A stretch of DNA of 64,000 nucleotides. Source: Oidiodendron maius Zn (Eukaryota; Ascomycota; Leotiomycetes; Myxotrichaceae). Positions within the stretch are counted from its first letter, which is position 1; the number at the start of each line of letters is the position of its first letter. The stretch lies in NCBI GenBank assembly GCA_000827325.1, contig KN832878.1, positions 620,001 to 684,000 on the forward strand. The letters run 5' to 3'. Below are positions 2,810 to 26,260 of this stretch, in pieces. The translations under genes were made by a program, and so were the position numbers. Under the pieces are notes generated by a model. It saw nothing but the letters and a program-made list of their open reading frames with translations. It was not told the DNA's origin and did no database searches.

Positions 2810-3669
2810 GTAGAGTTAGGAGAAGAGCTTCAGTCGCACCACAAATTACCACTTTGACAGGGTCAGGAAGAAACATCATGTCTCTCGTCGGAGCCCGAGT
2901 ATGGAATTTGGGCATATTGAATAAGTGACAGTCAGAAGTGCACGTATCTTTTGTTTGCGCTAATCCAATCTCCTTGTGTAAAATAAAATCAAAATTCGGA
3001 GTGCATTTATGGCACACTCAAATATAGCGTATCCCAGAACTCTAAACGCACATGCATGTTCCTTCTGACAGCTTGCCCGAATTCTTTTATATAGCTTGGC
3101 AATGAATATACTTGAATATAACTGTCTACGTAGCGCCGGACAACAAGTGTCTAATTTCCTAAACTTTTGGTTTACCATAAACATATAGGCATGCTGCCAT
3201 TTAGAATACTACAGCAGAGGTTTGCGCCTCGAGTGCCATTGCCATAAAGTATCTCCGTCCTTGATAAATGTTTCCATTATTATTAGGCATCTATGATATA
3301 AAGGACTCTTCTAACTGGACTTATAGGAACTTAGAATTTATGTAACAATATCTCAACTTAGTCTCTTTTAGCCAAAAATTAGTATCATACATTAGGCTAG
3401 AGGAATATAGCCTAGGAAAGAGAGCAACTAGATACAGCTCTAAAATTACCCAACTCTATAACAGGGAACAGAGGATAAGGGGCGCAGTAAACTGCCCAAT
3501 AATAGATCAATCTCACCTAGTTGGGCCGCAGGTCTAGCTAGGAGAGGCCATCTATTTGCATCTACGTGTATTAGTACCGGTTTACGAGACCTATCGCTAT
3601 TACTTTCGAAATGGATTAGAAACTGGCGATTAGTGACCCGCCTTGTCCTTGCTCTCCTTTATTCTCGCT
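2810..3669. other. Intergenic, no gene seen
   Basis: This AT-rich stretch holds only short frames without recognisable families. It separates the rhamnogalacturonase from a decayed methyltransferase on the opposite strand. Confidence 0.6.
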
Positions 3670-13063: not shown

Positions 13064-14956
13064 TCACACTATCATGAATTGCGTCCGCTTGTATCCGGGC
13101 ACTCGAAATGCTTCCCCATCCATTAATTCATGTAAGTAGCACTCGCCGACAAGCTCGAATAATTGTTTGTATGTTCCATGCTGTGTTGCACCTACAATTG
13201 GCCGCAGGATAAAAGGTACTTCAAATCCAAAGAAGATGGCAACGAAATCTCCTGCACGAGCGTTTGGAGTACAGAGTCCCATCCTCTCATTATCAGTAAC
13301 AAAAAGTGCTCGATCTTGAACAGTCATGAGGTGTTGCGATACCAGATCTTCGAAGAGCTGGGGGTCACCATGAGAAGGTAGTTCCGATATCCTGGACAGG
13401 ATGGTTTGATAGTCGAGTTCCCAAGACACACAAAAGTCCTTCAAAGAGAGGATCCATTCTGCTAAAGCTTCATGAGATGGCCTAGAGTCTTGATTTTTGA
13501 CAATTCGATCGTTTTCTTTGTTTGCAGTTATGATTCGGACAAACTCCTCGGCCAGGCGAGAAGACAGATTATCAATTGATGGTCGCCCTTTATATTCAAG
13601 AAAAAGTAAGCACCAAAGGGTCATATGAGCTTTCATCTCATCTGCAGAAACTAGCCCTAGGTCCGGTATGGCCGGGCTGCGTTTGGTTATCTGGCCGACC
13701 ATGAAGCCATCAATTTCGAGATGGGCGTGTGTACTCGAAGGCGATTTTTTTGATACGCGGAAGGCAGCCTTCCTCCCGCCAGCATCAAATCGGCTTCCCA
13801 GGTCATTCCACTCTTCGACAAAAGATTTTGATATTTGAGGTTGCCGCCAATCAGGAACCCAACTTGGCAGCTCTTGAGGTGCCGGAGACTGCCTTGGAAT
13901 TGCAATAGCATGTCTGAGAACTAAAGCGGGCCCTAAATCGTGTAAAACCAGGAGGAGTTTTGCAAAACGTGTATAAGTCCTCACCAGTGGTTCCTCATAG
14001 TCAACATCAAACGTAAAACGCTTAGTCCGGCCTCTTCCACCTGGACCTGTTCCGTACATATTGTTTAAGATACCTATAAGAGCATATATCCGATCATGAT
14101 CCACAGAACACTTTGCATAAAAGAAGCTAGTGAGGGACCTAAATATAGCAGCTCGGAGGTCCCATTCAGATTCCTTCTCCTTTCCTTGAATAAAGCTAAG
14201 GGCCCGGAGAGTTTCCAGTGGAGTTTGGCACTCTTCGGGCAAGAAGATGTTATAATAGTTAATGATGCCGAAGAAGTGTTGGAAATCTGAACTCTCCTTT
14301 CCGCATATCATTGTCGCTTCTTTTGCTAGTGCTAGTTCTTGGATCACCCACCGTCTTTCAAACCAGGATCGTTGGAAGAAATGGGAAATGAGCTCGGGTG
14401 ATTGCTCTATAAGATCCTTAGTATCGTTCTCATCCTCAAACGATAAAGAGCTGGAACTTCCTGTCGAGTTGGGGTTTCCCGTATTGTTGACTGCTTGAAA
14501 TAGTTTCTGAGATCTTTGGTCGCTTTCCCCCACCCAGACCAGCACACGCTTTGCCCGCCGATAAATTTCGGCCATATGTTGGACTTGGTAGCTCTTTTCC
14601 TTTTCATCCTGCTGATTGATACAGATAGCATCTATCCATAGTTTTCGCTCGGACGAAGGAAGACGAACTGCCTTAAGTAAGATACCTAGGCTTGGGGTGA
14701 TGCAAAGGTATGAGCCGTCATCAACTATCAGCCTGTCTGTATATTTTGGTTCCCCCCAAGCGTATGAAACCGCTTCCAGATCTCCGAGGTTGTGCAATGC
14801 GATATTTTCAATGCTACATTTGAGAGGCGCCGCTACATCAATGGCTGGGTGGAGGCGAACAGTGCGAGTCCAAAGAACCGATGGATGCAGGGCAACAGCG
14901 CGAGTCCAAAACAAGGGGAGACGCTGGTATTTGTAAGGTCGAGCCACCGAATCCAT
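13064..14956 (-). CDS. HET-domain (heterokaryon incompatibility) protein
   Basis: An intronless 630-residue protein. The HET domain begins with LEAVSYAWGEP (about residues 60-70). It continues with the hallmark LWIDAICINQQDE (about 106-118) and QVQHMAEIYRRAKRVLVWVGE (about 124-144). A RSWFERRWVIQELALA motif follows near residue 200. HET domains act as cell-death triggers in fungal non-self recognition; the C-terminal half after about residue 330 is the usual variable part. Near the N-terminus a 12-residue unit is duplicated (WTRAVALHPSVL then WTRTVRLHPAID), encoded by a 36-base imperfect tandem repeat at about 14860-14912. The ATG at 14956 is the first in frame and precedes a typical HET N-terminus. 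The gene appears intact. Its partner, if any, is not identifiable, although several NLR-type genes lie in the window. Confidence 0.93.
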   Translation of the reverse strand: MDSVARPYKYQRLPLFWTRAVALHPSVLWTRTVRLHPAIDVAAPLKCSIENIALHNLGDLEAVSYAWGEPKYTDRLIVDDGSYLCITPSLGILLKAVRLPSSERKLWIDAICINQQDEKEKSYQVQHMAEIYRRAKRVLVWVGESDQRSQKLFQAVNNTGNPNSTGSSSSLSFEDENDTKDLIEQSPELISHFFQRSWFERRWVIQELALAKEATMICGKESSDFQHFFGIINYYNIFLPEECQTPLETLRALSFIQGKEKESEWDLRAAIFRSLTSFFYAKCSVDHDRIYALIGILNNMYGTGPGGRGRTKRFTFDVDYEEPLVRTYTRFAKLLLVLHDLGPALVLRHAIAIPRQSPAPQELPSWVPDWRQPQISKSFVEEWNDLGSRFDAGGRKAAFRVSKKSPSSTHAHLEIDGFMVGQITKRSPAIPDLGLVSADEMKAHMTLWCLLFLEYKGRPSIDNLSSRLAEEFVRIITANKENDRIVKNQDSRPSHEALAEWILSLKDFCVSWELDYQTILSRISELPSHGDPQLFEDLVSQHLMTVQDRALFVTDNERMGLCTPNARAGDFVAIFFGFEVPFILRPIVGATQHGTYKQLFELVGECYLHELMDGEAFRVPGYKRTQFMIV

Positions 14957-17003
14957 GTGGAAAGGATGGACAATAGATTATGATTTCATTCAAGGGTATT
15001 TACGAGTTGGAGGTTGTGGTATGAGAACTTCTGTTGGGTTAAAATTTGTGCCCAACGCCCGATTTTTAACCTCGCCCGCCTAAGGCAGAGATGAACTATT
15101 GACGAGTCACCACGCCCTTTGCAACCTTCTCACGTGCTTGGGTGCCGGAGATGCTTGTGGGACCTTTGAAAGTAATACCTCCTATTGTAATCCAAATGAG
15201 AAAGAGCATATGGAGGCTAAGTGAGCATAACTAAAGTCACATACCCGAGGCGTTGCACATGTTATAACCAAAATCTAGACTCGAAGATGATTCGACAAAA
15301 TTCCACTCTGGCTGTGACGTATTGATATGGAATTCTGAAAGCCTATGCAGTTTACAGCATCTGGAAAAACCCGGCCAGCTTCCGGTTTGAAATAAATGGC
15401 ATAGTTGACAGGCACATTGATACCGACTGATAGTAGAATAATCACAGAGTGTTGAGAGGCTGGCTGAAATGCCACTGATATGCTTCCCAGCGCCTCATTC
15501 GCACGAGAAGGTTTAACAGAAATATCCGCAAGCGTAATATGTCCTTCCTGATAGATCTCCTCAAGAAGAGTTCATTATTGATGCTTTCGGTCCACCAGGC
15601 TGGGTCTGAAGCAGCGATTGAGGAAATGGCGCGGAAACCATCATTTCAAACCTGGCTATCGGAAGTGGAACGATGCCGAATGCTGGTATTGTATTGGCTA
15701 AGGAAAAACTCAGACTTGTTAGATTTACATGACCCGCTTAGTTCTAGGTCATGATCATGATAATTTGGGGGGATGGTGGGGATGATGAAGCGACCGCGAA
15801 CCACTTCATCCGGGATTTACCAACTAAAGAGAGAAAACTGCTTGGAACATCGTTAGAATCAGCGGTGGCTTTCAAGTTTGTTGCTGTGGTAAACCGGTAT
15901 ACATACCAACTGATTACACACACCAAATTCATAAATTACAGGCTTTATTCTAGTGTAGTATATTGGACTTAAAGGGGATACTGGCCAGAAGGGTTATTTG
16001 CACCACTTAGCTAAAAAGGGAAATTAGTTCGTGGTAATTGGTGGTGCCAATGTAATGGGAACCTGAATATCCCCAGCCGTGAAATGGGGCCTCCTTAATA
16101 GCCATTTAGTGCAGGTTGATAATCCAAGAAACGACGGCAAGTGTGGTGTTGGAGGCCCCATTTTAAACATATGCACATGCGCACACCCTCGACACGTTGA
16201 AAGTTGGGGGGTGATTGGTTAGTGCGGGTGATTGATTGTTAGAGGTTGAATTATAACTGGTAGTGATTTGCTGGTGGTAGTAGTAGGTGTTGGTGAAGAT
16301 AACTAGCGGTGATGGGCTGAAGTGTTGGCTGCCGCCGAGATAATTCCGATGGTATTTTGGCTGAGGTGATTCGCTAGGGTACGAAGTAAGCCAACATACA
16401 AAAACATATACACCCCCAACGGCCTGGAGCTCATTACTGAAGAGGGCCTGTTGGTGCAACAGTCCACGGATGACAAGCGCGCGGAGTTTGACCAACCAGC
16501 TGCCACATCCAGCGCTCGTTGCGCGTCGGCCGTGTCGCCAAATGTCGAAGAGTGGAGAAGACCGGTGATTGCAAAAAGTCCCGCGCGTTTACGAAGTGAC
16601 CGAGAACATTAGTAGGGCGCCAAAACCCCCGCTGTTTTGTAGGATTCGCCAGTAACTTAGGCTAAATTGTCAGCGGGGTGATAAGTGGTCGTGGTATGGA
16701 CTGATAAGGTCGTTCTGAACCTTCCCACCATTCCCCCACCATTTAATAACCAACAGCCATCAGTAGCCAATCGGGGAGCAGGGCTGTGCCTTCGCTCGCT
16801 ATCGAAGCATATAATGTGACCATTGATGGCTTTAGTGAAGTTGGCCGAGTCAAGACGACCACAATAGCCATCCAATTCCTTCCCCCTTCAACCGTGAAAT
16901 ATACAAGTACACACCCACACCACTGTGTCCGCCAACTGTCTAGTCTTGCCTTTAACCATCAATTATCGACACCGTTGTATACTTACAGTTACCGACAATC
17001 TCC
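14957..17003. other. Long gene-poor interval
   Basis: Frames at 15275-15475 (minus), 15539-15754 (plus) and 16163-16506 (minus) are each under 111 codons and show no family that I recognise. A GT-rich, trinucleotide-like stretch (GGTGGTAGTAGTAG) sits at about 16265-16290. The last 200 bases are likely the promoter of the next gene, with pyrimidine-rich patches. Confidence 0.4.
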
Positions 17004-17616
17004 ATGGCTCCCATATCTACGCGCATTCATAAACGTCCGGCTCTTCGGCGACAGCAGACGACTCTATCCCAGGATATTTCAGGTAAGCTGGATGTCTTGT
17101 TATTGCGCGGATATTGACCCCTGCGTAGCGCCACGGAGAAGAAGCTCCCGGGTCCAGTCAAGACAACAGCGCGGTCTTGATAATAGGGGTAGTGTGGGTA
17201 GCGAGACTCAACAACAGCAGGTCAATCGATTTTGTTGCCAAGGTCTAGAAAGCAAGGTGGCCGCACTCCTCACCGCAGAGTTCAATAGGATGAAACAGAA
17301 GGAAAAAGAATTGGACGATAGAATAAAGCAGAAGGAAGAGAAGTTGGACCGTATGCGACAGACTATAGAAAAAATGGAGACGAAATTAGAGATAACCCGA
17401 AAGGTGGCTGAGAGGTTATTTCGTGCTCAAGCGAGTACTGTTAAGAGCTTAGACGGCCGAATTCAGGATCTGGAGGGGATGTCAACTACCAACGTTGAAT
17501 CATTTGAGGAGGAGGAAATGTTAGATACTAGCCCAGAAAGCTTTCGGGAAATTCTGGAAAGGATAAGGAACCTTGGTAAGAATAATAGGGGAAGTAGCAT
17601 TCGGTATTCCGCTTGA
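17004..17616 (+). CDS. Small coiled-coil protein, unknown function
   Basis: Two exons (17004-17082 and 17129-17616) give 188 residues. The start is an ATG beginning MAPISTRIHKRP, and the 46-base intron has a consensus GTAAGC donor. The N-terminus is basic (RRRSSRVQSRQQR). Residues about 65-140 form a strongly charged heptad region (KEKELDDRIKQKEEKLDRMR, then MRQTIEKMETKLEI) typical of a coiled coil. The C-terminus is acidic. A longer unspliced frame upstream of the ATG exists but has a non-coding look, so I chose the spliced start. No catalytic motif is visible. A structural or scaffolding role is only a guess. Confidence 0.6.
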
Positions 17617-18306
17617 GGTCAGAAATGGAAAGCTACACGATTGTTTTGGGTACAGGAGTGTTCCCACGTGGATGCCGAGACAATAAGCTGTCAAGTGGGG
17701 TCAGATATAGGATTGGTGCTGGATTTAATTACACGTATTGCACAACAGAGATATTTTTGTTTAGACTCCACTGATCATGCGTGAATTTGATGCAGTCTAG
17801 GGTGGTTAAATATCCTGAAAATAAGGCTCAGGACGGCGGAGAGCCTTTGCGAAGATGTCTATAGCAATGTAAAAGAGTCTTAAGACGAAACAGCCCTTAT
17901 AAATCGTGGGCTCGCATCCGATAATTCCCTTAGAATCCAATATCCCATTCCCTTTAAATGTCTCTACACACTCTCCAACTCTATCTACAAACTTTTCACG
18001 GCACTCCTATATAGTAGCCTGCCGATTTTTTTGGGAAGTTCACTGCACTGTAATGTAAGGTACTTAGTGAGGCACAGAGATATATGCCCGCGGTGTAAGG
18101 CAGAGCTTTGGTTTAGGGCCGGCAGTTATCTAGAAGGTTTTGGCGAAGATAGTTCCAGAAAATGAATTGGAATGAATTTGGGAGTCACTCCCCTTACCCT
18201 GGTCGTTTGAATCAACTCTAGAATCGGGAACATAGCCATTTGCTTTTAGTGGAACATTCTTTCAACTCTGAGCCTCTATTTATCACATATTGACTTCTAA
18301 AATGGA
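17617..18306. other. Intergenic, no gene seen
   Basis: No conserved frame. TATA-like and CT-rich patches occur at 17.9-18.0 kb. Confidence 0.4.
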
Positions 18307-18510
18307 ATCAGTACGATTAGTGGGCAATCGGCTGGAAAGGGCTCTGCCCTTGAGGCCATATCAGGAATATCATGTCCTACGAAAGACAGTATCTACACGT
18401 GGTTTCCAACAGAGCTGGTCCTTCGCCGAGACGACAGGTTTGTGATCAAGGTCTCTATTAACCCAGGTCGCGAGAGATCAGCAGATGAAATGGAGGGTCC
18501 CTCTCACTAA
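18307..18510 (+). pseudogene. Fragment of a dynamin-family GTPase
   Basis: A 68-codon frame reads GQSAGKGSALEAISGIS, then PTKDSIYTWFPTELVLRRDD and KVSINPGRERSADE. This is the start of a dynamin GTPase domain: the P-loop, the LEAISG segment, and the T-FPTELVLRR switch-I region found in fungal dynamin-like and Mx-like proteins. The P-loop serine after GK is changed (GKG), which would damage nucleotide binding. There is no start codon of the expected kind, and the frame ends in a stop 68 codons in. The rest of the protein (normally over 600 residues) is absent from the flanks. It ends about 55 bases before the inverted repeat at 18565. Confidence 0.65.
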
Positions 18511-18564
18511 ATCGAGCTCAGCAGGTGTAGGACTTATGTAAATCTTATGCAAGCGGTCCCCACC

Positions 18565-18608
18565 TACACCGTGTCAGCTCTTAGCTACGTACGCTGAGCT
18601 GGGACCCG
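18565..18608 (+). repeat. Left 44 bp inverted repeat of a 2.8 kb unit
   Basis: The sequence runs from TACACCGTGTCAGC to GAGCTGGGACCCG. It matches the reverse complement of 21332-21375 at 42 of 44 positions by my count. Just upstream, AGCTCAGC and AGGTGTAGG (18516-18535) form smaller inverted pairs with parts of this repeat. Confidence 0.8.
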
Positions 18609-19112
18609 TGCCGTATCAACAAAAAGGATGTCCAAATTCAGATGCGAAAACATCACAGTTCGCCTCACTTCACCAAAGGATACCAATTATTGGTTTGGGG
18701 GATCAGGCTTTCAAATATTAGGTTACAGGAGTACAAGAGTCTGATCTCCAACAGCCAATCGTTTTACTGGGCACCACACATGGGGCGGAGCCTTGTGGAG
18801 GAAAAGCCAGACTTGTGGATACGCAGCACCACATGGGCATTCTTATCTTCGTGTGTATATCTGCTCTCATTGACCAAACTAGGCAAACTGACTACTGTAC
18901 GTGTCCTTTCCAACAACGATGTGGGAGTTGACGATGCGAGAAGTTGGAATGTGAGGACTTCTTGATGCCCACTAAGAGAGGTGGTTGTTCTGTAAGGCTG
19001 AGATTTTTACTTACTGCGGTTTCTCTTTGCCTCTAGTGATTTCGTGACGTCTCCTTCTATCTCTGGGGCCTGACACTGAGTTTTGGAATCCAGCTTCCTA
19101 TATCTCGCCGTC

Positions 19113-21243
19113 ATGGAGCCCATAAGCGGCATTGCTAGTATCTTCTCGGTCATCTCGCTGGCATTCCAGCTAGGGCAGACGGCTCTCGGCATCAAGAGAT
19201 TCATCGAAACAATATCTAATGCTCCGTTCGAAGTTATCCGGCTGAGAGATGTTATATTTCATCTCCATATTATTGCGGATGGTGTCACGACGCTGCTGGA
19301 CCGACAACAAACATTGCACAACGAAGACAATTCCATCTCCTGCGATTTACACCACGCGTTGAAGACATGCCAGAACAAGCTGGAATTAATTGAAAATGTC
19401 TTACGGAGAGCCGACGAGTTCAAGAAGGGTCGAATCGTATCGCGCTGCTGGGCAAATTTGCGCTTGGCATGCAAGAAAGGACAAATCGAGGAATTAGAAA
19501 GGCAGCTAGAACAGGCAATCTTGATCCTCAATGTAGTTATTACTACCAACTTAATGTATAACTATCCCCTCGGATTCTTCAGGACAGATGCTAATGCTGC
19601 TTGTTAGGTCCGGCCAAATGCGGATGACTCGACTATTGGTCGATAAGATTCAGTCCGAAGTACCATCAAGTATAGTAGAAAGTCAAAGCAGTTTTCGTCA
19701 GCTCGAAAATGGCTCCATTCAATCACTATCGACCCAAAACTCCCATACAATACCACTGATGGCACTTCGCGAGAATACTTGTCATATTAGCAAGATTCGG
19801 TCAAACAAGCTCGTATCAACGGTAGTAACCACTTCATCAAGCAAGTGGAGTCACCAAAGTGCACTTGGAGTACTATCCCTTCAGAAGGAAGAAAGATCTA
19901 AGACACATCGGCGGAAAGTACTTGAAAGGACAGTCGAAGCCGAGATGCAATATTGCATTCGGCCCTCCTTCCTCTCATGGTGCTTTGAATTTCGAATCAC
20001 AAAACTTAGTTACGGTCTACCACAGTATACATTGAAGGCTATTCAAATCATGGACAAAGAGACAGAGAGGGATTTACAAGTTATCTTTTACGACAAAGAT
20101 TTGGCTAGATTACAGAAGAAGTTAGCAGATGGAACTGTAGCCTTGAACGGCATGAATTCGCGTGGAGAGTCTCTATTAATGGTATGGGACCCAGAGTTTT
20201 GTTCAGTCTACTGGCTTCTAATTTTCTGAGTTCAGTTCGCACAACATTGTTTGGACGAAGATGCAGCAGCTTTCCTCGCTCAACAAGGCTGTCTTGTCAC
20301 TAGAAGCAATGTAGAAACCTGGTAAGAAATTTAATCTTCCCGCCTGACATCAATTTGCTTACTCAGTGCCAGTGCTTCATGGGGTTCTTCATCGGAATGG
20401 GCCTTTCAAGAACTTTGCTCAAGAGCAGATCTTGATGACTGCTGTGTGGACGAAATATTTACGGACCCTGAAGATATAATGAATAGACCATCCATGCTGG
20501 AGTGGTATATCACCACCAGACTTGATAATACCTCATTGGATCCGAATGAATTCCTAGGTTCCGCTCTATTAGTAGAAGCAGACGCATGGGCATGCATCAT
20601 CGATGAGATTGGAAGATCAGTTTTGCAAGGCAGTGACCTGGAGGTCCGAATAAATAGAAGGGGGCGCTGGGAACACCTCTTGAGACGATCAATCTATGGA
20701 GGAGCTAACCTCCATTACTTGGACCAGCATGGTTTGACTATTCTCGAAAGATGGGTCGAGGCTTTCCATATACTCGACGCTCAAGAAATCATCCAAAAAT
20801 GGCTGCAGTTTCTGGAATCTTGTGATGTTGACACTTATCAATATATACTCAACGAGTCCCAGGTACTTCAAGCCTGTCCCCGGTCAAAAGATTGGATATT
20901 ACGGTTTTGCTGTAATAAGACGGTAAAAATCTTCTTCGACTCATGTCGAACCTCAGAGGTGAGAGTTTCATGGTGGGCTGACTCTAAATGTCCTGGTGCG
21001 CTGGTTATTGAAGAATTTTCGGGCTTAAGAGATGGTATGATCGATTGGAACTGGAAAGCCTGTTGGCCATTCTCCTACGAAACTCACCCGAAGAGTCAAG
21101 GTGTTGATCGCAGGATAAAATCGTTTGCACAGAGATGCCACGAACGGCAATCCCGATTCGAGCGGCGGCAGGCGAAGAAAGAACGGAAAACTAGGCGGAG
21201 TCAAGGTTCCACGTCTGTGATGCCGGGTTCTTGGGTTTTCTAG
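19113..21243 (+). CDS. NLR-N-terminal-like / ankyrin-type protein
   Basis: Four exons (19113-19555, 19608-20181, 20236-20321 and 20367-21243) give 659 residues with phase-consistent GT..AG introns. The N-terminus (MEPISGIASIFSVISLAFQL, then a helical region to about residue 145) is the domain placed ahead of NACHT or ankyrin regions in fungal STAND proteins. The middle has KKLADGTVALNGMNSRGESL followed by a CLDEDAAAFLAQQGC segment, which reads as degenerate ankyrin repeats. The C-terminal part has GGANLHYLDQHGLTILERW, another ankyrin-like unit, and ends in a basic tail (ERRQAKKERKTRR). There is no Walker A motif, so it is not a complete NLR. The gene lies wholly between the inverted repeats at 18565 and 21332. 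Relatives probably act in immune-like signalling; its exact role is unknown. Confidence 0.8.
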
Positions 21244-21331
21244 GCTGAGTTTCATGCGTTTACTCTCGTTTTATCTTCTGCCTCGTAGGATGTTGAGGTA
21301 AGAAATCTGACGAAGACTAGTACACTAGTAT

Positions 21332-21375
21332 CGGGTCCCAGCTCAGCGTATGTAGCTAAGTGCTGACACGGTGTA
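21332..21375 (-). repeat. Right 44 bp inverted repeat of the 2.8 kb unit
   Basis: This is the reverse complement of 18565-18608 with two differences. The 89 bases before it and the DNA after it hold no coding sequence. I found no clear target-site duplication outside the pair. Confidence 0.8.
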
Positions 21376-21605
21376 AGTACTGTACGAGACAGTGGTTGCT
21401 CTAGTTCATGGGACACCTGAACTTTATCACACGCTTCTAACTTTACAACACAGCATAATTAAAGCTTCTAAATTGATGAGAACATTCGCTGTACTTAGCT
21501 CTCTATTTTCACCAGCTTTGGTTTTGTTTTAAGCTCGAAATTGTGAAAGAAATCCGGGTTGTTCATTTCAGGTGTCTCCATGAATTAGCGCAACTGCTGG
21601 TGCGT

Positions 21606-21650
21606 TAACGTAGTGATTAGTGAGCCGGTCAGCATCAGTAAGCTGGCCAG
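21606..21650 (+). repeat. Solitary pogo-like terminus
   Basis: TA followed by ACGTAGTGATTAGTGAGCC and AGCATCAGTAAGC resembles both the pogo element end at 21702 and the MITE end at 23567. It is probably the remaining end of another related element into or beside which the pogo copy landed. Confidence 0.5.
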
Positions 21651-21701
21651 CTTAGTGCCGTATTTAGACTAGCTGATGTAATTACACCTGATGTGTCTGT
21701 A

Positions 21702-23560
21702 ACGTACTTGATCAGTAAGCCGGACAGATCAGTCAGCCGGACAGGCTCCCGAAAACCACACTCAATTCTCCACTCTTGACTAATATTACTCCACAACCAA
21801 CGCTCCAAATGTCTCAAACCGAGGGTCGAATCACACTTGCACTTCAGGCCTATCAGAAGGGCCAATTCTCAAGTTTACGGGCTGCAGCACGTGTATATGA
21901 TACTCCACCTTCAACCTTGCATGACCGATATCATAGGATTACCTCTTGATCCAATTCTAGATCTCCTAACCTTAAACTCACTCAAACCAAAGAAACTGTA
22001 CTTATCGAGTGGATATTATCCCTTGATATATATAGTATACCACCTACACAAATCTTAGTGCAACAAATAGCTGAATTACTCCTTGCAGAACGTGTCCAAA
22101 ACACGTTGATTGAACAGACAACATTAGGCCAGCGCTGGGTCTACCGCTTTATAACTCGATACCCTGAAATCAAATCCCGATACAGTCGAAAGTACAATTA
22201 TAAGCGCGTAAAATACAAGGATCCTAAGGTTATTCGAGCCTGGTTTCGGCTTGTATAGAATATAGTGATAAAATATAGGATTCTAGATAAGGATATATAT
22301 AATTTTGATGAGACGGGATTCCAAATAGGCGTGATTTCTATAGCAAAAGTAGTTATATCTGCTGAGAGGGATCATATAGTGTCACTTCAGCCTGGAAATC
22401 GTGAATGGGTTACAGCAATTGAGTCAATTAATTCTATAGGCTGGGTCTTGCCCCCTATGATTATCGTTAAAGGTATCAAGCACCAATTGAGCTGGTATAA
22501 GGCTTTGCCTTGCCACTAGCCTATTAGAGTCAGTGATAATGGCTGGACAAATGACGAATTAGGCTTTACCTAGCTTAAGGATATGTTTAATAAGTATACT
22601 CAAGGTTATACAGTTGGGATATATCGGCTTCTACTTATAGACGGCTATAGAAGTTATGTTATAGCTGAATTTGACCAATATACCAAACAAAACTCAATCA
22701 TTGTGCTCTGTATGCCTCCCCACTCCTTATATATTCTATAGCCTCTAGATGTAGGCTGTTTTGCAGTCTTAAAACGACTTTATAGATATGCTATAGAGGC
22801 GCAAATGCAGGTCGGTATTAACTATATTAACAAGGACGACTTTCTGACCCTATATCAAGAGATCCGTCTAGCTGTATTTCAATCAGCTATAATTCAGAGT
22901 GGTTTTAGAGCCACTGGGACAGTTCCATTTAACCCGGATTGAGTTTTGTCAGAATTATATGTCCAAATCCAGACGCTATTACCTCCTCCAGCATTAAATA
23001 TCCTACGTCCCTGGGACCCTGAAACACCGTATAACATTGCTGAATTATAGCTTCAGACTAAGGCTATACAACGATTAATTCGGTATCAAACACAGAGTCC
23101 TCCTACTCCAGCTATTCAGGCAGTCAATCAGCTAATTAAGGGCTGCCAAATGGCTATATATAACGCGACAATTCTTGCAGCCGAGAATAGGCAATTACAG
23201 GCTGCAAATACAAGGGTACAAAAGAATAGGGCTAAGAAAACAGTATTTGTCGGTAGAGGAGGGGTTTTGATAGGTGAAGAGGTTCTAGAGGGTCGGAATC
23301 AACCTACAACTCATGATAAGGTTAGAATTCAGGTAGTTGAGCAACCTATAACGTCTGTATTAACACGTACGCCACGGACGTATAGTATATATAGATCATT
23401 AGAACATATTGCTTGTACATGCCCAGAGCGTCAATAAATCCACTGGTTCAATTAGCTAGTTAGTATTTAAAGTGGTTGATTTTTAATTAATTAATATATA
23501 TGGTGATGGTGGGGAGCCTGTCCGGCTGACTGATCTGTCCGGCTTACTGATCAAGTACGT
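21702..23560 (+). mobile_element. Pogo/Fot1-type DNA transposon with perfect 49 bp terminal inverted repeats
   Basis: Bases 21702-21750 (starting ACGTACTTGATCAGTAAGCC, ending CAGGCTCCC) are identical to the reverse complement of 23512-23560. TA dinucleotides flank both ends (21700-21701 and 23561-23562). The 1,859 bp length and a single transposase frame fit the Tc1/mariner-pogo superfamily. The intact ends suggest that the copy could still be mobilised in trans although its transposase is broken. Confidence 0.93.
21809..23437 (+). pseudogene. Pogo-type transposase with seven in-frame stop codons
   Basis: One frame of 543 codons runs from the ATG to the TAA at 23435-23437 with no indel. It is interrupted by stops at 21947, 22256, 22517, 22571, 22739, 22940 and 23048. 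The N-terminus (ALQAYQKGQFSSLRAAARVY) is a psq/CENP-B-type helix-turn-helix. A second DNA-binding helix region contains LGQRWVYRFITRYPEIKSR. The DDE catalytic domain shows FDETGFQIG, then IDGYRSY (normally DGHxSH), then PPHSLYIL-stop-PLDVG (normally HLLQPLDVG). Each stop can be explained by one C-to-T or G-to-A change (Gln, Arg or Trp codons), and His-to-Tyr changes of the same type hit catalytic motifs. That is the pattern of RIP. The C-terminal 95 codons are open. Confidence 0.9.
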
Positions 23561-23566
23561 TAGTTA

Positions 23567-23990
23567 ACGTAGTTTATCAGTAAGCGATACACACCAGTAA
23601 GCGATACAGCTAAATTTACTGCAAAAATCACGATTTTGAAACTGCAATAACTTAACCATTTCTAAATATTTTAATATAAAATTAAAACTCCTAGCTATTT
23701 ACTTATATCTGATTAATGTTTAGGGATTTAAAAGAAATTAATCTATAAACTTTTAAGATACTAAATTTTGGCTCTAATATTTAGCTATAACCTTTAGAAC
23801 TTAATGACTACCTAATAGATAAATAAGATAAGCTCAAATATTGATTAAATATAGATAAATAGGTAGAGATTTTAATGTTATACTAAAGTATTAAGAAATA
23901 ACTAAGTTATTGCAGTTTCAAAATCGCGATTTTTGCAGTAAAATTAGCTGTATCGCTTACTGGTGTGTATCGCTTACTGATGAACTACGT
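23567..23990. mobile_element. 424 bp MITE with ~88 bp inverted ends, related to the pogo element
   Basis: The left end starts ACGTAGTTTATCAGTAAGCG and continues through TACTGCAAAAATCACG to AACTGCAATAACTT. The right end repeats this in inverse orientation over about 88 bases with about four differences. TA flanks both sides (23565-23566 and 23991-23992). The first 20 bases resemble the pogo element ends 21702/23560. The core is very AT-rich and non-coding. It lies four bases from the pogo element, so the two are side-by-side insertions. Confidence 0.85.
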
Positions 23991-24346
23991 TATTTGCTTA
24001 TATAATACGTAAACAAACGCTTCGGGTTAGCTTCTAGACTAAGACTATTTAGGCTAGCCATGTTCTAATGTCAACACTGAGTATATTCCTGTAGGCAGGC
24101 ACGTGACTCGCTTAGGTCCCCGCCATGCATTCAGCTCTCATCTCAAGTCTCTAGGATTCCTTTCTTTTAGACAGACGCACCATCAAGAGATCATACTCTT
24201 CAAAGTACTTCATCGTACATTGTGAGATCGTGACACCTCAGCACATACTCACGCTCTCTTGAAACAAGATCACCACGTCGCCTACAACTGCGCGAGGTAT
24301 GTAAAATGTGTATATATGGTGTGAATATTGCTAACATTTGCTTAGC

Positions 24347-24607
24347 ATGCCACTAACCCATGCTGATTTCGAGAACGCCTCGGTGACCGCCGCGGCCAAT
24401 CCCTCCCGGTGGGTATATCACCATGGTAGGCTTATGCCTTTCACTCTACGTACAAATACTAATGGTATACAGGTCCAATCCCGAACCCCAATGTTGGTTG
24501 GATTCCACCCTCCCGATAGTATTGAGGTGATATTGAGCCGATCGGGTTGTAAGGGTGTTATAAAGCAAAAAGATATACGGCGTCCTAGTCTTGGAAGATA
24601 CTTTTAA
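24347..24607 (+). other. Short candidate gene start, unknown
   Basis: An ATG directly follows a plausible 5'-UTR intron (GTATGT donor at 24299, CTAAC branch site, TTAG acceptor at 24345). It opens a GC-rich coding-like stretch (MPLTHADFENASVTAAANPS). A donor-like GTGGGT follows, and the frame becomes AT-rich. No downstream exon could be joined with confidence and no family is recognised. It may be the 5' remnant of a lost gene. Confidence 0.3.
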
Positions 24608-26260
24608 TGTGGACTTGCTTATGCAGCAGCTCCGAAAAGGTGTGGCAGATCTAGTCAAGTATGTGATGTGGTTAATCTCAGCTGATGTGCCGCTTTGCTC
24701 AATTTGGAGAATCATGACGTATGAATAATTATCCGTTCTATAAATGTCTCCAAAAATAGCTACCAGGGCATAGGAATCTATTTACGAATAAAGTGTATGT
24801 GCCCCGCGAACATCAACATGTCGACCCCAAATCTCCGCGGACCCTCATTGTCTGACAAGACGCGCACCGGCGATGGTCACAGTCGGGACACGTCTCGATC
24901 TTTATACAAATGTGCGGGCGCCCACAGCTACACTGTCCGAGAATGTGGTTAATATTTGTTTGAGTTTGTTATTTGAATACTTCACTTACACATTCCCATT
25001 CCCACCTATACCTTCTTCTCGGGGGCTAGACTCGTTAACATAATAAATCCGGTACTGGGTTAGTGGAGCGTTTAATCAAAAGCATCGCTTACTAGTTCTA
25101 GTATCGGAAAAGATAAAGAATTAGGCGTGAATACCAAGTGCCATATTGCTTCTACTCGTTTCTGACGAGGTTCGCACGAATAGAGATGCCCCTGTAGGCT
25201 AATCAAAATGATTTCCTTGCAGACTTCCTCAGACTCGTGTTTTGATCTCTTGGCTAGACACTGTACAGCTAACATGTTCTTGCTCTGCATCATGACTTCG
25301 ATCTCTCATGTCGTTTGTGGTAAGCGATGAGGTTTGGTGATACTTTCGATGCTATTAGAGTCAACACCTATTAGCGCTTTCCACGAGATACAAATATGCC
25401 AGCATAATACCGTCTTAGTATTTAGACTAATTTGCCTTGGTGCGCCTTAATTGAAAGTAATCATAAATTATTTCCTAGATAGCATGATAATAGTTATATG
25501 CTCAATGATAACAACTATGCTATAAGCCGCTCTTAACTAGTGCTAATCAAGGCCGACAGCATTTGTATGATGGTACGATGATTGGCCTTTCGCAGCCCGG
25601 AGACGAATCTTGTAGAGCTACCGAATAGAGCTAAGGGGTGAGGGGATGGAGGCCTTGATTTGCGATTCTCCGGACATGTCGGGGGATGGAAAGAGATCTA
25701 CGTGGCCATGTAGGTAATATTATAAACTGGAACGTCCCTAGTCTACCCAATGTGTGCTTCGAAGAAATCCTTTCTGGTAGTGGCATAGCTCTAAGTTTCA
25801 TTTCCCTAGCTGGCGTCGTACACCTGGCCCGCAACTGGTGTTTATAATATCATGTAGTACAGAAAATGAACAATGTAATTGCTGCCACCCCCCCTGCATA
25901 CGTCAATAGAGCCGCCATGGCGCGTATTCTCCATATAGTGTGTGGTATTCTACCAAACCTGATACAAAGTGAGGAACGACATTGCCCAGACATCCGCGCT
26001 CGTACTTTTGTAAACCAGATCCAAGCTCCCCAGATGAGTCAAATTCTTACCGAGACGCTCCTGTCCATCCGTACTATGGTTGCCACCTTTGGGCGAGACA
26101 CCTCCGACGAAGGCTCCTTTGACCAATGACATTGCTGTACTTTTGCCCTTGCTTGCACGTCTTCCCAACCTCGTGATATATAAAACCTGCTCTTCCCCGA
26201 TTACAGAGTAGGATCCTTCTCAGCCTAGCAACTCATCTGGATGGACCTTTTCCATTGTCG
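24608..26260. other. Gene-poor interval
   Basis: Only frames under 90 codons occur, for example 25866-26129 (plus), none recognisable. The last few hundred bases are probably the promoter of the Clr5-domain gene. Confidence 0.4.

What the first reader, a model, noticed from the sequence alone, without database searches (positions are those of the whole stretch)
18565..21375. NLR-like gene enclosed by a 44 bp near-perfect inverted repeat pair
Bases 18565-18608 and 21332-21375 match as reverse complements at 42 of 44 positions, 2.8 kb apart. The whole coding part of a four-exon NLR-N-terminal/ankyrin-like gene lies between them, with no transposase. This could be a non-autonomous DNA element that has captured a recognition gene and can move it, or two independent insertions of a solo repeat in opposite orientation. 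I saw no target-site duplication, so mobility is inference.
Basis: partly seen in the sequence, partly recalled or inferred. Interest (0 to 1): 0.75.

Follow-up and report, generated by a model that had tools for sequence, protein, structure and literature searches.

The report
Immune-like gene between mirrored repeats
In a fungal genome, a gene resembling part of an immune receptor sits between two mirror-image copies of a rare sequence of about 50 bases; the other copies found stand alone, two of them beside scraps of another gene family, so this may be a decayed gene-carrying element, but movement is not shown.

Summary
The inverted repeat is real: 18562-18608 and 21332-21378, 47 nt, 94% complementary. 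Between the arms lies a complete four-exon gene (659 aa). Its start weakly resembles SesA/HeLo-type fungal NLR N-termini; Pfam showed no nucleotide-binding or ankyrin domain.

Eight searches of the 45.9-Mb assembly found five copies of the repeat: this pair and three lone ones (C11, C20, C22). No second arm was seen within about 5 kb of the lone copies. Two paralogous genes are not bracketed. The inner edge is the same in all five copies. On the outer side L, C11, C20 and C22 share about 6 bp beyond the TA tip and the right arm does not, so TA is not a simple target-site duplication; none was found. Two of three lone copies abut, at 0 and 11 bp, short pieces of one kinase-WD40 gene family, on the side that faces the gene here.

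Best reading (0.45): a decayed low-copy element carrying a gene or gene pieces. Close rival (0.38): a short lone repeat, duplicated locally and caught in mosaic repair junctions. Mobility of the gene is unproven; no related strain was held for an empty-site test.

The parts
18559..18608 (+). Left copy of the repeat (core 18565-18608; outer edge uncertain by a few bases)
   Evidence: 47-nt inverted pair; 50-bp, 92% match to C11
21332..21378 (-). Right copy of the repeat, inverted (core 21332-21375); lacks the outer bases shared by the other four
   Evidence: matches C11 over 21332-21375 at 93%
19113..19555 (+). Exon 1, SesA/HeLo-type N-terminal region
   Evidence: SesA E 0.0036 below cut-off; helical model pLDDT 65.6
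19608..20181 (+). Exon 2
20236..20321 (+). Exon 3
20367..21243 (+). Exon 4 with stop codon; no Pfam match

Best explanation
18559-21378 is most likely a decayed, low-copy, non-autonomous element whose ends are the 45-54 bp repeat and which holds a complete SesA/HeLo-type, recognition-like gene with its upstream and 3' region. The lone copies would be single surviving ends of sister copies that had picked up pieces of a kinase-WD40 gene. Shown: the pair, the gene, five copies, the common inner edge, the abutting gene pieces. Inferred: that the pair are two ends of one element, that it once moved, and that the pieces were captured. The class is open: no target-site duplication, ends of unequal outer extent and a possible hairpin resemble Helitron2-type ends more than a TA cut-and-paste element. 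The gene product probably acts, or acted, in HeLo/SesA-type self/non-self signalling (inference from the family).
For: Pair proximity is not expected by chance (0.0012 pairs). The arms enclose a whole, open gene. The inner edge is the same in all five copies while the next ten bases show no similarity, as for an end with changing cargo. At C20 the inner edge runs into a 46-column match to a WD40 repeat and a 70-bp match to the kinase part of the C8 gene; at C11 a 149-bp match to the leader of the same gene lies 11 bp away. Both are on the side that faces the gene in the window.
Against: All three other copies are lone within about 5 kb. No target-site duplication. L and R (42/44) are barely closer to each other than to C11 (41/44 each). 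The right arm lacks the outer bases that the other four share. Two paralogues of the gene are not bracketed. The unit was not seen at any of seven Helitron-type loci in the flanks held, and no transposase with these ends was found. At C22 no gene piece was recognised on the inner side. The drawn hairpin is not the predicted best fold of C11 and C22.
Confidence: 0.45

Rival explanations
1. The unit is a short (45-54 bp) dispersed repeat that stands alone. The second copy beside the gene arose by local inverted duplication or a templated repair insertion; nothing moves the gene. The gene pieces at C11 and C20 are filler from the same kind of mosaic repair.
For: Three of the four loci hold a lone copy. 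Four copies share about six outer bases and all five a fixed inner edge, so the unit looks self-contained. C20 is a patchwork of short pieces joined within a few shared bases. No target-site duplication.
Against: Does not by itself explain why the two close copies enclose exactly one complete gene, or why gene pieces lie on the inner side in two of two cases.
Confidence: 0.38
2. A Tc1/mariner-type (or other TA-target) cut-and-paste element with 42-44 bp terminal inverted repeats that carries the gene; TA at both tips is the target duplication.
For: TA stands at both tips of the pair (18565-18566, 21374-21375). Cargo between the repeats of a Tc1/mariner-type element is published for Pyrenophora tritici-repentis (PMC3538342, passages).
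Against: L, C20 and C22 share CCCACC outside the tip (C11 CCCATC), which a target site should not; C22 has GA at the tip. Three lone ends.
Confidence: 0.1
3. The unit is a conserved regulatory or RNA element near gene ends, and its doubling here is functional.
For: A nine-pair stem can be drawn in all five copies, 44 of 45 cells paired. At C20 and C22 a coding frame ends about 180 and 130 bp from the unit.
Against: No Rfam match in 16000-25000 at E up to 1. Seven of nine pairs never vary and none has a compensating change. Fold z-scores of four copies are -1.49, +0.83, -1.62, -2.64. Neighbouring genes are unrelated.
Confidence: 0.05

Closest known systems
Transduplicating hAT and Tc1/mariner elements of Pyrenophora tritici-repentis (PMC3538342, passages seen)
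   Same: A non-transposon gene lies between inverted repeats in a fungal genome.
   Different: Those families have tens of copies with the same cargo, and the hAT form keeps transposase sequence; here there is one pair, no transposase and lone copies.
Helitron2-type elements of Fusarium oxysporum (PMC5148889, passages seen)
   Same: No target-site duplication, inverted ends of unequal outer extent, possible hairpins at the ends, gene capture reported for Helitrons in general.
   Different: The inverted repeats there are 12-16 bp, here 44-47 bp; no Rep-helicase gene is near any copy here and the ends of the C27 Helitron-type element were not determined.
SesA/HeLo-like N-terminal domains of fungal NLRs (PMC9815663, passages seen)
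   Same: Weak SesA match of the gene; a paralogue passes the PigL_N and SesA cut-offs.
   Different: No nucleotide-binding domain and no recognised repeat domain, so not an NLR in the strict sense.

Membership tests
TIR DNA transposon (cut-and-paste, non-autonomous) | Terminal inverted repeats | tested here: met
   47 nt, 94%, one pair only
TIR DNA transposon (cut-and-paste, non-autonomous) | Target-site duplication | tested here: not met
   None for the pair or any single copy; TA lies inside the shared repeat in three of the other copies
TIR DNA transposon (cut-and-paste, non-autonomous) | Several copies with both ends | tested here: not met
   Five copies, one pair; counts are lower bounds by the tool's own note
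TIR DNA transposon (cut-and-paste, non-autonomous) | Empty site in relatives | not testable with these tools
   The genome has no relatives in the holdings
Helitron2-type element (non-autonomous) | Asymmetric inverted ends with hairpins | tested here: inconclusive
   Outer extent differs between R and the others; stem can be drawn but is not the best fold of C11 and C22
Helitron2-type element (non-autonomous) | Ends shared with a Rep-helicase element | tested here: inconclusive
   Seven Helitron_like_N matches, six over cut-off; unit not seen in flanks of about 1.5 kb, best score 30 against a shuffled top of 31, nor in 2.5 kb beyond the C27 frame
Fungal NLR (STAND) protein | Nucleotide-binding domain (NACHT or NB-ARC) | tested here: not met
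   No such Pfam match at E up to 1
SesA/HeLo-like domain protein | Profile match over cut-off and helical bundle | tested here: inconclusive
   Own match below cut-off; paralogue above; five helices at pLDDT 65.6; no PDB fold match at E 0.001

The most novel reading that the evidence does not exclude
An undescribed family of low-copy elements with a 45-54 bp end sequence that collects genes and gene pieces of the fungal recognition repertoire (SesA-type and kinase-WD40) and can bracket a whole, intact recognition gene as a movable cassette.
Probability: 0.15. Interest if true: 0.65.

Novelty: new member of a known kind. Interest (0 to 1): 0.36.

Why it matters
How fungi spread and reshuffle self/non-self recognition genes is not settled; [quoted passage not shown] A sequence-defined bracket around one intact gene, with sister copies next to pieces of a second gene family, gives a concrete locus for testing this with strain genomes. 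If the lone-repeat reading holds, it is an ordinary rare repeat.

Tried and rejected
Protein homologues: none of 7,996 scored candidates reached E 0.001; how many fungal proteins that collection holds is unknown to me, so this says little. Rfam: no match at E up to 1 in 16000-25000. Origin of the unit from a WD40 repeat: the last 8-10 bases of the C20 unit match one C8 repeat, but the unit against the whole C8 locus scores 25, below the shuffled top of 31. Units near other loci of the kinase-WD40 family: 0 of 13 (C8 with 10 kb, 12 others with about 1.5 kb flanks). RIP: the bracketed stretch has TpA/ApT 0.72 against 0.85 for the window, so no sign that it was mutated as a repeat. A profile of the five copies was built but could not be run on this genome. 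The fold search of the N-terminal model gave no match at E 0.001; the C-terminal model was too poor to search. The ends of the C27 Helitron-type element could not be found in the stretches held.

Literature: six searches; the listings shown, which for the first four are only the best 12-15 of 41, 96, 17 and 49 papers, name no fungal NLR-like gene between such repeats. This does not show that none is in print. Passages, not whole papers, were seen of PMC5148889, PMC3538342, PMC9815663 and PMC12258605.

Full report
The observation. The two arms are present as described and slightly longer: 18562-18608 and 21332-21378, 47 nt, 94% complementary, 2723 nt apart. The window is C9:620001-684000 of an unnamed 45.9-Mb, 58-contig genome; that it is a filamentous fungus is my inference from a HET-domain gene in the window (PF06985, E 1.4e-30) and the short introns. 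In the core the arms agree at 42 of 44 positions.

The gene. Four exons join into an open frame of 659 codons with three GT-AG introns of 52, 54 and 45 nt. Pfam gives a SesA match under its cut-off (E 0.0036) and no nucleotide-binding or ankyrin match. Two paralogues were found, at C20:335606 (26% over residues 1-337) and C4:1189103 (28% over residues 2-150). Their first 150 residues are 33% and 32% identical to this one, their last exons 25% and 24%; the C20 one passes the PigL_N and SesA cut-offs, the C4 one has a PigL_N match below cut-off. So this is an intact-looking member of a small family with a SesA/HeLo-type start, not a full NLR. Neither paralogue has the repeat in the 10 kb held around it.

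Copies of the repeat. One DNA search of the bracketed stretch, five pattern searches and two searches with lone-copy flanks give five places in all: left (L) and right (R) arm in C9, C11:164030-164080 (-), C20:146177-146230 (+) and C22:609160-609213 (+). each list all five; the others list subsets. Reversed-pattern controls gave 0, and 1. The tool calls such counts lower bounds. Around each lone copy (10 kb held) the best other score is 22 to 26, below the shuffled top of 31.

Anatomy of the unit. The inner edge (CCCG) is the same in all five copies and the next ten bases show no similarity. On the outer side the ten bases before the tip are GGTCCCCACC (L), CATACCCATC (C11), TAGACCCACC (C20), AAGACCCACC (C22) and GTACAGTACT (R). 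The TA that could pass for a Tc1/mariner target is thus inside the shared repeat, and C22 has GA there. No target-site duplication was found at the pair or at any single copy. L-R agree at 42 of 44, L-C11 and R-C11 at 41 of 44, so the pair is barely closer to itself than to C11. A nine-pair stem with a two-base bulge can be drawn in all five copies, 44 of 45 cells paired, but seven of nine pairs never vary and none has a compensating change. Fold z-scores of L, R, C11 and C20 are -1.49, +0.83, -1.62 and -2.64, and the best fold of C11 and C22 is a different one. The hairpin is possible, not shown.

What lies beside the lone copies. At C20 the inner edge runs into a 46-column match to a WD40 repeat of the gene at C8:1227709-1229092 and then a 70-bp, 87% match to its kinase part; by my reading that piece ends within a base of an exon end. 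The last 8-10 bases of the C20 unit are part of the WD40 match, so the join lies inside that overlap. At C11 a 149-bp, 79% match to the leader of the same C8 gene lies 11 bp from the inner edge. The C8 query has 15 matches in the genome including itself. Of the other 13 loci of this family none shows the unit in the flanks held. In the window, both inner edges face the SesA-type gene. At C22 no related sequence was found on the inner side; a weak methyltransferase-like frame ends about 130 bp from its outer side. At C20 a frame of the TPR-repeat gene ends about 180 bp from the outer side, with a HET domain upstream; I did not build that gene model.

Weighing. With five copies at random, 0.0012 pairs within 2.8 kb are expected, so the pair needs a cause: two ends of one element, or a local inverted duplication. 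Gene pieces at the inner edge in two of three lone copies favour an end with changing cargo. The lone state of three of four loci, the shorter right arm and the patchwork at C20 favour a lone repeat caught in repair junctions. I give 0.45 and 0.38. On either reading, mobility of the gene is not shown.

Comparison. Gene capture between inverted repeats is published for Pyrenophora tritici-repentis (PMC3538342, passages). Helitron2-type elements of Fusarium have asymmetric inverted ends and hairpins (PMC5148889, passages). This genome has seven Helitron_like_N matches, six over cut-off, one in an open 1506-codon frame at C27; none shows the unit in the flanks held. [quoted passage not shown] So the kind is known; this instance is of uncertain class.

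Noticed in passing
window 21390-21607: A roughly 210-bp MITE-like repeat with inverted ends starts 12-14 bp outside the right arm; copies at C2 (88.5%), C17 (87.4%) and C13 (86.8%). Its flanks agree at only 5 of 8 bases as a possible duplication.
   Followed up: partly
window 21700-23562: An element with 60-nt inverted ends (93%) and a Tc5-type transposase DNA-binding domain (E 6.9e-9).
   Followed up: partly
window 23565-23992: A 157-nt inverted repeat pair (87%) directly beside the previous element; part of it recurs near the C20 paralogue (L034:1781-1854).
   Followed up: no
window 13067-14977 (-): A HET-domain frame (PF06985, E 1.4e-30), a second recognition-type gene in the same window.
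   Followed up: no
L034:1898-1934 and 3213-3249: A 37-nt inverted repeat pair, 97%, 1.3 kb apart, upstream of the C20 paralogue and not enclosing it.
   Followed up: no
L047 (C8:1227709-1230430): A kinase-WD40 gene family with 15 genome matches, several of them short pieces; the leader matches C11 only while the coding part matches other loci.
   Followed up: partly
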